Shown piece after piece: positions 17,923-21,519 of a DNA stretch of 23,200 nucleotides. The stretch spans positions 1 through 23,200 of IMG/VR virus record IMGVR_UViG_3300027232_000020; one strand, 5' to 3'. The first letter of the stretch is position 1; the number at the start of each line of letters is the position of its first letter. Origin of the DNA: a virus. The notes under the pieces were generated by a model, which saw only the letters and a list, made by a program, of their open reading frames with translations, was not told the origin of the DNA and searched no databases. The translations under genes were made by a program, and so were the position numbers.

Positions 17923-20289
17923 ATGACAGTCAGCGATGGACCAATTATAATGAACACAACACCTAGTATCAAGCCGCTTGTTGTTTTGCTGAACAGAGGC
18001 GCACTTAGCACGCTGAAAGACAAGCCCGGCAGCACTTACGACGGGATCACGGCGCAGCAGATCGCGGCCATGGTCGCAACGCCGCAGTCAGTCAGCAAGT
18101 CCGAGGCACTCTTCATCATCCCATCCGAATATCGTGAACACGACGGCAGGTCGCACGAAGCGCAGCGCACGATGGGGCAATATCGCTATCTGGCCTTCGA
18201 TATCGATAGCGGCAACCACACGCTGGCAAAAATCAAGGACAGCTTTGAGGCTATATTCCCCGACGCTGGCATGATGATCTATTCGTCGGCTTCGGCCTCT
18301 GAGGAAGAGAAGAAGTGGCGCGTGTTGGTGCCGCTGAGGACAGCCATCGCCGGAGCCAATTACCCCGAAGCGACAATGGAGGCGGCTGACATGCTGCGGC
18401 ATCGCGGCATTACCTGCGACCCGTCGCTGACACGCTGCGGCCAGCCAGTCTACCTACCAAACGTCCCGCCAGAGCGCAGGGACGAAGCCGGAGAGCCGCT
18501 GTTTTATCAGTCAGAGATCGTCCGCAAGCGTGGCTACGAGTATCACGGCGGCGACATAGAGCAGGCCGTCCGGCAGGCCGAAATCCGCAGGCAGGCGTTG
18601 CAGGAACAGGCAGCGGCAGATCGTGAACGCAGAGCCGCAGAGCGGGCCGCACAGCGGGCATCCCGTGGCGATGAGATAAGTGCAGTGGAGGAATTCAACG
18701 CGCGCCACAGCGTGGCCGACATCCTGGCAAAATACGGTTACGCCAAGCAAGGCCGCAGCGATCAATACCGCTCGCCCAATCAATCATCCGGCAGCTATGC
18801 GGTCAAAGATTTCGGCACGCACTGGGTCAGCCTATCTGGCAGCGACGTGAGCCTTGGCATCGGACAGGTGAAAGATGGCTGGTGCTGGGGCGATGCCTTT
18901 GATCTTTTCTGCTTCTATGTCCACGGCGGCGACATGAAGGCGGCAGTCCGATCCTATGGCGCAGAAATCCGGGGGCCTCAGTTGACAACACCCGACGACC
19001 CGCTGGCCGACTTTGAATTCGTCAGCGAAATTTCGTCGGCACCGGAGGCCAATGAAACAACGCCGGAGCAGCAATCCAACGAAATTTCGTCGGATGATGA
19101 CTGGCAGTTGCCGGATGCGGGCGATGAGCCGCCGGAGCCGCAGCACTGGCCGACGCCAGCGACCAACTTCGACTCCAGCGTCCTTCCCCGCCGCGAGTGG
19201 ATTTACGGGCATGACTACATCCGCAAATACGTCAGCGTGCTTGCGTCGGCAGGTGGCATCGGGAAAACATCGCTGACCGTTGTTGAGGCGCTGGCAATCG
19301 TCACAGGCCGCAACCTGCTAGACACGCACGTGAAGCAGCAATGCAACGTCTGGATCGTCAACCTAGAAGACCCGCGACTTGAAATCGAAATGCGGATGCT
19401 GGCTGCAATGCAGCACTACAAGATCGAACCGTCAGAGGTGCGCGGCAAACTTTTCTATGATGGTGAAGATACCTTTGCCATGACGCTGGCCGCTGAAGGC
19501 AGGGACGGCTTAAAGACCAATGACGCGCTGCTTGAGATGATGACACGCAAGGTCAGGGAGCATAACATCGGCGTGGTCATCATCGACCCATTCGTCTCCA
19601 CACACCTTGTCAACGAGAATTCTAACAGCGGCATCCAAGCTGTCGTCGCCATGATCCGCAAGCTGGCACGCGACACCAATTCATCCGTCTCGCTGGTCCA
19701 CCATGTCCGCAAAGGCAACGGGGATGACGCCACCGTTGACAGTGTTCGCGGGGCTGGTGCGCTGATCGGCGCTGCCCGTGCTGCACGGGTCATCAACCGG
19801 ATCACTGAGGACGACGCGCTGCGAATGGGTGTGGACCAGAAGATCGCAAAGGGCATCTTCAGGGTGGACGATGGCAAAGCAAACCTTGCACCTCCCGCCG
19901 ACAAGGCTGTCTATCGCCGCATGATCGGCGTGCAGATCGACAACGAGGAGTGGGTGGGTGTCTGCGTGCCGTTTGAGATGCCTGATCCGTTTGATGACGT
20001 AGGGCCGAAAGAACTCCGCAAGGTGCAGGATATGGTTGCCGGAGCGGAAGCTAATGAAGACCCGTATCGCGCCAATGTGCAGGCGAAGCATTGGGTCGGC
20101 AACGCAGTGGCCACTGTCTTGGGGCTGGATGGCAGCGACAAGGCGCACAGGGCGCGCATCGGCATGATCATGAAGACGTGGATCGCCAACGATGCGTTGC
20201 GTGTGGAAACCACTGAGAGCAAGCGTGATGGCCGCGAGGTGCCATGCGTTTTCGTCGGCAACTGGGTCAAGCCAGAGGAGATGGAGTGA
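17923..20289 (+). CDS. Primase-helicase (AEP-like N-terminus, RepA/RecA-like ATPase)
   Basis: A 788-residue replication protein from ATG 17923; a later ATG at 17950 is possible. Residues ~85-140 carry YRYLAFDIDSGN (D-x-D, residues 93-95) and SSASASEEEKKWRVLVPLRT, the order seen in archaeo-eukaryotic-type primases of phages, though the usual His of the middle motif is not seen. Residues ~250-350 (HSVADILAKYGYAKQG...GDAFDLFCFYVHGGDMKAA) resemble a primase zinc-ribbon module without its cysteines. The C-terminal half is a RecA-type helicase: Walker A ASAGGIGKTS (~441-450), Walker B VVIIDPF (~551-557) and a sensor-like SLVHHVRKG. A charged Glu/Asp/Pro linker joins the halves. It probably unwinds and primes phage DNA. 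Confidence 0.8.
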   Translation: MTVSDGPIIMNTTPSIKPLVVLLNRGALSTLKDKPGSTYDGITAQQIAAMVATPQSVSKSEALFIIPSEYREHDGRSHEAQRTMGQYRYLAFDIDSGNHTLAKIKDSFEAIFPDAGMMIYSSASASEEEKKWRVLVPLRTAIAGANYPEATMEAADMLRHRGITCDPSLTRCGQPVYLPNVPPERRDEAGEPLFYQSEIVRKRGYEYHGGDIEQAVRQAEIRRQALQEQAAADRERRAAERAAQRASRGDEISAVEEFNARHSVADILAKYGYAKQGRSDQYRSPNQSSGSYAVKDFGTHWVSLSGSDVSLGIGQVKDGWCWGDAFDLFCFYVHGGDMKAAVRSYGAEIRGPQLTTPDDPLADFEFVSEISSAPEANETTPEQQSNEISSDDDWQLPDAGDEPPEPQHWPTPATNFDSSVLPRREWIYGHDYIRKYVSVLASAGGIGKTSLTVVEALAIVTGRNLLDTHVKQQCNVWIVNLEDPRLEIEMRMLAAMQHYKIEPSEVRGKLFYDGEDTFAMTLAAEGRDGLKTNDALLEMMTRKVREHNIGVVIIDPFVSTHLVNENSNSGIQAVVAMIRKLARDTNSSVSLVHHVRKGNGDDATVDSVRGAGALIGAARAARVINRITEDDALRMGVDQKIAKGIFRVDDGKANLAPPADKAVYRRMIGVQIDNEEWVGVCVPFEMPDPFDDVGPKELRKVQDMVAGAEANEDPYRANVQAKHWVGNAVATVLGLDGSDKAHRARIGMIMKTWIANDALRVETTESKRDGREVPCVFVGNWVKPEEME

Positions 20290-20978
20290 TGCTTCACTAT
20301 CACGGCACACCTCTCACGCCGAGAAACGAAATGCTGAAAATGGCTGGCAAACACTTTTGCGTCAGTTACGCGCACCCTTTTGACGGAGACTGGTGCCTTC
20401 AGAATGGCCAGTCCGTGATGTGGGACAATGGAGCATTTAGTCTACATACTAAGGGCAAGTCAGTCGATTGGTCAGGTTTTCACCAGTGGCTTGAATGCCG
20501 CCTTGGCCATCCGCACTGGGCCGTTGTTCCAGATGTTATTGATGGTGACATTGAGGACAATCTGAAACTCATTAACCAATGGCCACATCAGAAAAGCATG
20601 TCCGCCGTTGTTTGGCATATGGGGGAGCCAATAAGTCATTTGCATAGACTTTGCGATCTAGGCTTTGCAAAGGTTTGCTTTGGCAGTTCAGGTGCTTACT
20701 GGCAAGTTGGCTCTGAAGCATGGGAGCGGCGGTGCGATGAAGCATTTAACGCTCTGGCATCAAATGGTGCGCTTCCTTGGGTGCATATGCTTCGCGGTTT
20801 GGCGCTGTGCGGTGATCGTTGGCCGTTTGCTAGCGCAGACAGCGTGAACGTAGCACGCAACTTTAAGAATAAAGGCTCTGAAACTTGCCCAGAGAGAATG
20901 GCAAGGAGGATCGACGCTGTTCAATGTCCGGTGAAATGGACACAGCGCGCAACACAAATGGAGATGTTTGATGTTTAA
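20289..20978 (+). CDS. dpdA: DpdA-like DNA transglycosylase (TGT superfamily)
   Basis: A 229-residue protein; ATG 20289 overlaps the primase-helicase stop (TGATG). DpdA enzymes exchange guanine in DNA for a 7-deazaguanine base, which shields phage DNA from host nucleases. The TGT-like barrel is suggested by the ordered motifs MWDNGAFSL (Asp46), AVVPDVIDGD (Asp82), a glycine turn VCFGSSGAYW (131-138), PWVHMLRGLAL (163-173) and FASADSVNVARNF (Asp184, the expected nucleophile position). It lacks the four-ligand zinc site of tRNA-type TGTs and is much shorter than those (~370 aa), so action on tRNA is unlikely. The transporter gene that follows starts inside its last codons. The T-ending codon usage looks different from its neighbours, hinting at separate acquisition. 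The symbol reflects family likeness only. Confidence 0.72.
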   Translation: MLHYHGTPLTPRNEMLKMAGKHFCVSYAHPFDGDWCLQNGQSVMWDNGAFSLHTKGKSVDWSGFHQWLECRLGHPHWAVVPDVIDGDIEDNLKLINQWPHQKSMSAVVWHMGEPISHLHRLCDLGFAKVCFGSSGAYWQVGSEAWERRCDEAFNALASNGALPWVHMLRGLALCGDRWPFASADSVNVARNFKNKGSETCPERMARRIDAVQCPVKWTQRATQMEMFDV

Positions 20979-21519
20979 GTTTCTGCTCATTGCAGCATTC
21001 GCTGCAACCGTCCCAGCGGCAAACTGGATGATCGGCAATGTCGGGCAATGCATTCCGAATGGGCCATGCCTTATTCCTGTCGGTTTTGGTCTTATGGCTC
21101 CATCAGGTGTTTTGATGGTCGGCGCTGCATTGGCTTTGCGTGATGCTGTCCACTCAATTCTTGGTGCCAAGTTCGCGCTGATCGCCATCGCTCTCGGTGT
21201 GATCTTGTCCGCCGCCGTTGCACCTGCATCACTTGTTATAGCATCTGCCGCAGCGTTCTTGATGTCTGAATTGTCAGACTTTGCCGTCTATGCACCTCTG
21301 CGGCAAAAGAGTGTGCCAGCGGCGATCATTGCATCCGGCTTGGTTGGCTCCGTTGTAGACAGCGCGGCGTTTCTTTTGATCGCGTTCGGAAGTCTGGACT
21401 TCATTGCGGGGCAAGTCGTCGGGAAAATGGAGATGACGCTTGTATGCGCCGTTGCTGCGTTGATGCTCCGCCGCACCTTTTCCGCACCTCAAAAACAGGT
21501 GCGGAGTGCGGAGAAATAA
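20971..21519 (+). CDS. VUT/YhhQ-family queuosine-precursor transporter
   Basis: A 182-residue membrane protein; ATG 20971 lies in the last codons of the DpdA-like gene (8-bp overlap), and a TTG at 20968 precedes it. The family (COG1738, QueT/YhhQ/VUT) imports preQ0, preQ1 or queuine. Hallmarks visible are LMAPSGVLMVGAALALRDAV (an APSG...LRD signature), several TM helices (IAIALGVILSAAVAPASLVI; the helix around AAFLMSELSDFAVYAPLR) and the final SVVDSAAFLLIAFG with conserved Asp. About five or six TM helices fit the compact versions of the family. Pairing with a base-exchange enzyme suggests it feeds the phage DNA-modification reaction from the medium or host. Confidence 0.85.
   Translation: MFKFLLIAAFAATVPAANWMIGNVGQCIPNGPCLIPVGFGLMAPSGVLMVGAALALRDAVHSILGAKFALIAIALGVILSAAVAPASLVIASAAAFLMSELSDFAVYAPLRQKSVPAAIIASGLVGSVVDSAAFLLIAFGSLDFIAGQVVGKMEMTLVCAVAALMLRRTFSAPQKQVRSAEK

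What the first reader, a model, noticed from the sequence alone, without database searches (positions are those of the whole stretch)
20289..21519. Two-gene DNA-modification module: DpdA-like transglycosylase plus queuosine-precursor transporter
Seen: a 229-aa protein with TGT-superfamily-like motifs (Asp46, Asp82, FGSSG turn, Asp184 in SADSVN) is followed, with an 8-bp overlap, by a VUT/YhhQ-type membrane protein (APSG...LRD, VVDSAAF). Known: DpdA-type enzymes put 7-deazaguanines into phage DNA and VUT/YhhQ proteins import preQ0/preQ1/queuine. Inference: this phage lacks its own preQ0 synthesis in this window (no FolE, QueD, QueE, QueC seen) and instead imports the base and swaps it into its DNA, a minimal salvage-type anti-restriction system. 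The DpdA version is unusually short and lacks a tRNA-TGT zinc site.
Basis: partly seen in the sequence, partly recalled or inferred. Interest (0 to 1): 0.88.

Follow-up and report, generated by a model that had tools for sequence, protein, structure and literature searches.

The report
Phage imports and swaps a DNA base
A phage carries two overlapping genes, one predicted to import a modified guanine-like base and one predicted to swap it into DNA, and in related phages the importer is sometimes replaced by the enzymes that make the base, which points to what it imports.

Summary
Window 20289-20978 encodes a 229-aa DpdA-like protein (PHROG 887, E 1e-37); 20971-21519 encodes a VUT/YhhQ-family transporter (PF02592, above its cut-off); they overlap by 8 bp. 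Asp46, Asp82 and Asp184 are invariant in 61 of 61 aligned relatives, and the best solved-structure matches of the model are TGT-superfamily enzymes, including DpdA.

The pairing is not chance. In IMG/VR, 70 of 80 related dpdA loci have the transporter next door on the same strand, in either order. Of 80 transporter loci, all 78 that could be judged sit beside a TGT-like gene. In one phage (L076) the transporter is replaced in place by queD-queE-queC, while a close relative (about 86% identical DNA) keeps it. This implies that the imported base is preQ0 or something convertible to it. Transporters of the same lineage also sit in chromosomal Dpd islands.

DNA as target is inferred: related phage MED16 has 7-deazaguanine in its DNA. 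Protection from restriction is untested, and MED16 showed little. Short DpdAs and phage YhhQ were known separately; the systematic coupling and the transporter/biosynthesis exchange were not found in the literature I could search.

The parts
20289..20978 (+). dpdA-like gene, 229 aa: short TGT-superfamily protein (PHROG 887)
20971..21519 (+). VUT/YhhQ-family (PF02592, PHROG 4899) transporter gene, 182 aa, overlapping dpdA by 8 bp
20424..20426 (+). codon of Asp46 (DNGAF motif), invariant; proposed general acid/base
   Evidence: role inferred from TGT/DpdA motif order
20532..20534 (+). codon of Asp82 (PDVIDG motif), invariant; proposed base recognition
   Evidence: role inferred
20838..20840 (+). 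codon of Asp184 (SADSVN motif), invariant; proposed nucleophile
   Evidence: role inferred

Best explanation
The two genes are a minimal salvage-type 7-deazaguanine DNA-modification module. The VUT/YhhQ protein brings a 7-deazaguanine precursor, most likely preQ0, into the infected cell. The short DpdA swaps it for guanine at some positions in DNA by TGT-type transglycosylation (Asp184 as nucleophile, Asp46 as general acid/base). The phage thus need not carry queD-queE-queC. Shown here by computation: conserved coupling, invariant catalytic-type residues, a TGT-like predicted fold and in-place exchange of the transporter for preQ0-synthesis genes. Inferred: that preQ0 is the base, that DNA is the acceptor, the roles of the residues, and that the benefit is evasion of host nucleases.
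For: PHROG 887 match E 1.4e-37. 37.5% identical to MED16 DpdA, a phage whose DNA contains dADG (PMC8306585). Invariant Asp46/82/184. TGT-superfamily structures lead the structural comparison, DpdA 7ui4 Z 11.2. 70 of 80 dpdA loci have the transporter on the same strand, 55 abutting or overlapping, both orders. 78 of 78 judgeable transporter loci have a TGT-like neighbour from two PHROGs; phiLM21 adds a third. L076 has queD-queE-queC exactly where the syntenic L086 has the transporter. QueC was found only in that record among 40. Dpd-island transporters of Devosia and Microvirga nest within the phage transporters, away from housekeeping YhhQ. Actinophages with the pair infect M. smegmatis, reported to have no preQ0 genes (PMC6884629).
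Against: No chemistry is known for this family with a transporter. Mycobacterium phage Orion has a DpdA but no modification in its DNA (PMC6884629), so DpdA alone does not guarantee it. MED16 modification is sparse and gave little restriction resistance. Fold evidence has a small margin: unrelated PdxJ Z 11.0, Foldseek not significant. Direct profile comparison with TGT and bacterial DpdA was not significant. L080, L081 and Mae-JY30 have dpdA with neither transporter nor Que genes seen.
Confidence: 0.72

Rival explanations
1. The enzyme modifies tRNA rather than DNA: the phage imports a queuosine precursor and changes tRNA anticodons to tune translation during infection.
For: Related genes are annotated queuine tRNA-ribosyltransferase; the fold is that of tRNA-TGT.
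Against: Zinc motif and C-terminal part of tRNA-TGT are missing; PF01702 does not match the window though it matches all 14 control genomes and all four prophage host genomes, which have their own TGT; related MED16 has modified DNA (PMC8306585); the transporter lineage is shared with Dpd islands.
Confidence: 0.1
2. The enzyme acts on a protein, as Cap10 does in type IV CBASS, or interferes with such a defence, using an imported 7-deazaguanine.
For: Cap10 (9ntn) is the best structural match, Z 13.0; Cap10 is a TGT-family enzyme remodelled for a protein (PMC11996544).
Against: The Cap10 margin over true TGTs is about 1 Z unit and identity is 7%; no Cap9-like QueC protein in the window and no PADLOC match.
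Confidence: 0.05
3. The module works as proposed but imports preQ1 or queuine rather than preQ0, so the base in DNA is different.
For: YhhQ-family members differ in specificity: E. coli preQ0 and preQ1, Chlamydia queuine (PMC11130926). dPreQ1 occurs in some phages (PMC6884629).
Against: Exchange with queD-queE-queC and no QueF in any of 33 phage records including that one point to preQ0.
Confidence: 0.1
4. The two genes are neighbours by chance or as co-travelling cargo, and the membrane protein does something else.
For: Both genes have lower G+C (50% and 54%) than the window (58%), as cargo genes often do. The NCBIfam queuosine-transporter model is below its cut-off.
Against: Both gene orders, several TGT-like partner families, two deep transporter lineages and replacement by Que genes are hard to explain without functional coupling.
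Confidence: 0.03

Closest known systems
Phage DpdA without preQ0-synthesis genes (third group in PMC6884629; MED16 DpdA, cluster DpdA/TGT_1, PMC8306585)
   Same: Short TGT-like enzyme, no preQ0 genes found, 37.5% identity to MED16 DpdA, same invariant Asp, His and Gly positions
   Different: No transporter beside the six enterobacterial, Pseudomonas and Vibrio relatives inspected; here it overlaps dpdA
YhhQ / QPTR (COG1738, PF02592), preQ0/preQ1 transporter
   Same: Vut_1 match above cut-off
   Different: Separate lineage from host housekeeping copies; 182 aa against 212-250 aa for those; below the NCBIfam equivalog cut-off
Bacterial dpd genomic islands (dpdA, dpdB and restriction genes)
   Same: DpdA-type enzyme with transporters of the same lineage in Devosia and Microvirga; YhhQ in about 9% of islands (PMC11888242)
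   Different: No DpdB or restriction genes here; island DpdA is 429 aa
Phages with full preQ0 synthesis (CAjan, Rosebush; PMC6884629)
   Same: 7-deazaguanine insertion into DNA by DpdA; L076 shows the synthesis genes in the transporter's place
   Different: They make preQ0; this module is predicted to import it
Cap10 of type IV CBASS (9ntn; PMC11996544)
   Same: TGT-derived fold; best structural match by a small margin
   Different: Acts with Cap9 on a protein N-terminus; 7% sequence identity

Membership tests
DpdA (TGT superfamily, phage type) | Sequence relation to a DpdA-like family | tested here: met
   PHROG 887 E 1.4e-37; MED16 DpdA E 2e-26
DpdA (TGT superfamily, phage type) | TGT-type barrel | tested here: met
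   Predicted model, TGT-superfamily structures on top, Z 11-13; small margin over PdxJ, Z 11.0
DpdA (TGT superfamily, phage type) | Catalytic-type Asp residues conserved | tested here: met
   Asp46, Asp82, Asp184 in 61 of 61; equivalence to TGT residues is by motif, not superposition
DpdA (TGT superfamily, phage type) | Inserts a 7-deazaguanine into DNA | not testable with these tools
   Only known for relatives such as MED16 (PMC8306585)
tRNA-guanine transglycosylase (PF01702) | Match to the family profile | tested here: not met
   No match in the window
tRNA-guanine transglycosylase (PF01702) | C-terminal zinc-binding Cys/His motif | tested here: not met
   No CxC or CxxC in the protein
VUT/YhhQ (PF02592) | Match above the curated cut-off | tested here: met
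   37.7 bits against 27.2
VUT/YhhQ (PF02592) | NCBIfam TIGR00697 queuosine precursor transporter equivalog | tested here: not met
   29.2 bits against cut-off 50.95
VUT/YhhQ (PF02592) | Transports preQ0, preQ1 or queuine | not testable with these tools
   Inferred from context and the exchange with queD-queE-queC
Bacterial dpd island | DpdB and restriction genes beside dpdA | tested here: not met
   The neighbours of the pair in the window are phage replication and recombination genes; no DpdB-like gene was seen beside it
Cap10 (type IV CBASS) | Encoded with QueC-like Cap9 and a CD-NTase | tested here: inconclusive
   No QueC family in the window; no PADLOC match for either protein; a CD-NTase was not searched for

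The most novel reading that the evidence does not exclude
Transporter-coupled salvage is a widespread, distinct mode of phage DNA modification, in which an importer and the preQ0-synthesis genes are interchangeable parts beside several distantly related short DpdA families (PHROG 887, 15826, 1279). It would allow modification even in hosts without a queuosine pathway, and would make a phage's DNA chemistry depend on preQ0 in its surroundings.
Probability: 0.5. Interest if true: 0.68.

Novelty: new variant of a known kind. Interest (0 to 1): 0.52.

Why it matters
It would explain how many phages that carry only DpdA get their base. The 2019 survey (PMC6884629) raised uptake as a possibility but saw no correlation of YhhQ with any phage group. 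It predicts that DNA modification of such phages depends on preQ0 released by neighbouring microbes. It also gives a likely function to PHROG 4899 (precursor transporter) and PHROG 15826 (short DpdA), both listed as unknown, and isolated phages exist in which to test it.

Tried and rejected
Pfam, NCBIfam and PADLOC gave no family for the 229-aa protein. Sequence searches of the PDB found nothing meaningful, singly or as profiles. Foldseek alone listed general TIM barrels without significance for the enzyme, and only weak ECF S-component hits (E 0.76) for the transporter. Direct profile-profile comparison with host TGT and bacterial DpdA was not significant; with PHROG 15826 only a short stretch around the first two Asp motifs aligned (E 0.002, probability 14%). 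No preQ1 riboswitch or other Rfam family in the window and no tRNA gene. MT837598, with a transporter relative but no P0001-family gene, was set aside because its other genes look bacterial. The 2023 paper on further phage 7-deazaguanines and the 2024 review are not held, so an earlier description of this pairing there cannot be excluded.

Full report
What is there. The two ORFs exist as described: dpdA-like 20289-20978 (229 aa) and VUT-like 20971-21519 (182 aa), overlapping by 8 bp. The dpdA start overlaps the stop of the 788-aa primase/helicase gene at 17923-20289. Around them are recombination and replication genes (RusA-like, exonuclease VIII, single-strand binding protein, primase/helicase) and, further left, portal and major head protein, so this is a tailed phage. 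Window G+C is 58%, dpdA 50%, transporter 54%.

Identity of the enzyme. It matches PHROG 887 (queuine tRNA-ribosyltransferase) at E 1.4e-37 but no Pfam, NCBIfam or PADLOC family. Among isolated phages the nearest relatives are 40-47% identical (Pam5, RHph_N3_2, RHph_X2_30, Mae-JY30, DMCA); then follows a large enterobacterial and Vibrio group including MED16, 37.5%. MED16 DpdA was reported to match Thermotoga TGT by HHpred (probability 99.18%), and MED16 DNA contains dADG at about 0.13% of G (PMC8306585). The AlphaFold2 model from 56 sequences is confident (pLDDT 88.5, pTM 0.85). VIA-align ranks TGT-superfamily structures on top: Cap10 Z 13.0, archaeosine TGT 12.2, bacterial TGT about 11.0-11.8, DNA preQ0 insertase DpdA 11.2; the unrelated barrel PdxJ reaches 11.0 and Foldseek alone is not significant. 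So the fold supports the assignment but does not prove it. The invariant residues (Asp46, Asp82, His110, Gly132, His166, Arg169, Asp184) fall at or just after the ends of predicted strands, as in barrel active sites. Equivalence to TGT catalytic residues is argued from motif and order (DNGAF beside DSGGF of host TGT and DCGAF of bacterial DpdA), not from superposition.

Identity of the transporter. Pfam Vut_1 is met above cut-off; the NCBIfam queuosine-transporter equivalog is not. The model is confident and has six long helices. By tree, phage and Dpd-island transporters are separated with full support from the housekeeping YhhQ-like proteins of the host genomes.

Is the pairing more than chance? 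From 80 IMG/VR loci found with the enzyme, 70 have the transporter on the same strand: 34 with dpdA first, 36 with the transporter first; 69 lie within 250 bp and 55 abut or overlap. Of the ten without it in the fetched DNA, six have under 900 bp of sequence on at least one side; for one of these, L056, a PF02592 match is present on the full contig. Of the four with room, L076 has queD-queE-queC, L032 has a queE-like gene, and L080 and L081 have neither nearby. From 80 loci found with the transporter, 70 have a P0001-family gene, 8 have instead an adjacent gene with the same motif series (DNG, PDVV or PDIV, GGST or GGTT, D.xDG) belonging to PHROG 15826 where scanned, and two are cut at a contig end. 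Several loci are near duplicates, and five are the window's own phage, so these are counts of contigs, not of independent events. In isolated phages a tblastn with the transporter finds 21 records; apart from MT837598, which looks bacterial, all have a DpdA-like gene next to it or one or two small genes away. The partners fall in three PHROGs: 887, 15826 and, in phiLM21, 1279. The enzyme tree needs at least three changes of gene order. The transporter tree has two deep phage lineages, and one of them (L030, L050) is found beside dpdAs whose close relatives carry the other.

The exchange. L076 and L086 are syntenic at about 86% identity over 4.3 kb upstream and 89% in dpdA. Between these blocks L086 has the transporter and a 78-aa ORF, while L076 has queD, queE and queC. 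L076 lies beside L086 inside the transporter-bearing clade. QueC was found in 1 of 40 related records, that of L076; QueD in that one and weakly in DMCA, which lacks the transporter; FolE in none of 48; QueF in none of 33 phage records. The simplest reading is that transporter and queD-queE-queC supply the same thing: preQ0, or something the cell can turn into it.

Hosts and Dpd islands. Four bacterial genomes carry prophage-like copies: Agrobacterium pusense, Devosia, Rhizobium subbaraonis and Microvirga alba, each with the transporter beside dpdA. All encode full-length TGT. Three have a full-length QueC; R. subbaraonis shows only weak partial matches. Devosia and Microvirga also have chromosomal Dpd-type islands (the Devosia one checked with PADLOC: DpdA, two DpdB, DpdF, DpdH, weak DpdG) in which queC is followed by a transporter of the phage lineage, about 54% identical to the window's. 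YhhQ in about 9% of dpd islands is already reported (PMC11888242).

What is known and what is new. DpdA-only phages, phage YhhQ homologues and the idea of uptake are in PMC6884629, which saw no correlation between YhhQ and any phage group. YhhQ is also noted in archaeal viruses that have the full pathway (PMC8651126). I found no description of systematic dpdA-transporter coupling or of a transporter/queDEC exchange in the held library, but two relevant papers are not held.

Limits. No chemistry is shown. The record is probably a fragment: a same-phage contig reaches 7.8 kb further right, where terminase and tail-type genes but no QueC match or evident Que gene are seen, while DNA to the left of the window is unseen. 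Restriction protection is a hypothesis; for MED16 the effect on the enzymes tested was minimal.

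Noticed in passing
L086:5768-6004, L074:4987-5223, L080:5753-6001, L081:4814-5065 and about 20 loci in all: A recurrent 78-85 aa protein lies next to dpdA, with or without the transporter (weak PHROG 37496 match, unknown function); possibly a third component in some lineages, absent from this window.
   Followed up: partly
L002:17005-17265 (Pam5_29), L006:8723-8977 (DMCA_033c): Another small protein family follows dpdA in these two phages (PHROG 9572 match).
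   Followed up: no
L135:2306-2905, L202:3479-4126, L204:3444-4064: PHROG 15826, listed as unknown function, appears to be a second short DpdA-like family paired with the transporter.
   Followed up: partly
L192:1401-13269, L193:7671-12581: Chromosomal Dpd-type islands in Devosia sp. ZB163 and Microvirga alba, with queC directly followed by a transporter of the phage lineage; the only full-length QueC found in that Devosia genome is the island copy.
   Followed up: partly
L080:6001-6681, L081:5062-5757: Two related dpdA loci with neither transporter nor preQ0 genes seen; their source of the base is unexplained.
   Followed up: partly
L201 (MT837598.1): A record labelled Bacteriophage sp. whose genes around the transporter relative look bacterial (glnE-like, grpE-like), so probably not a phage.
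   Followed up: partly
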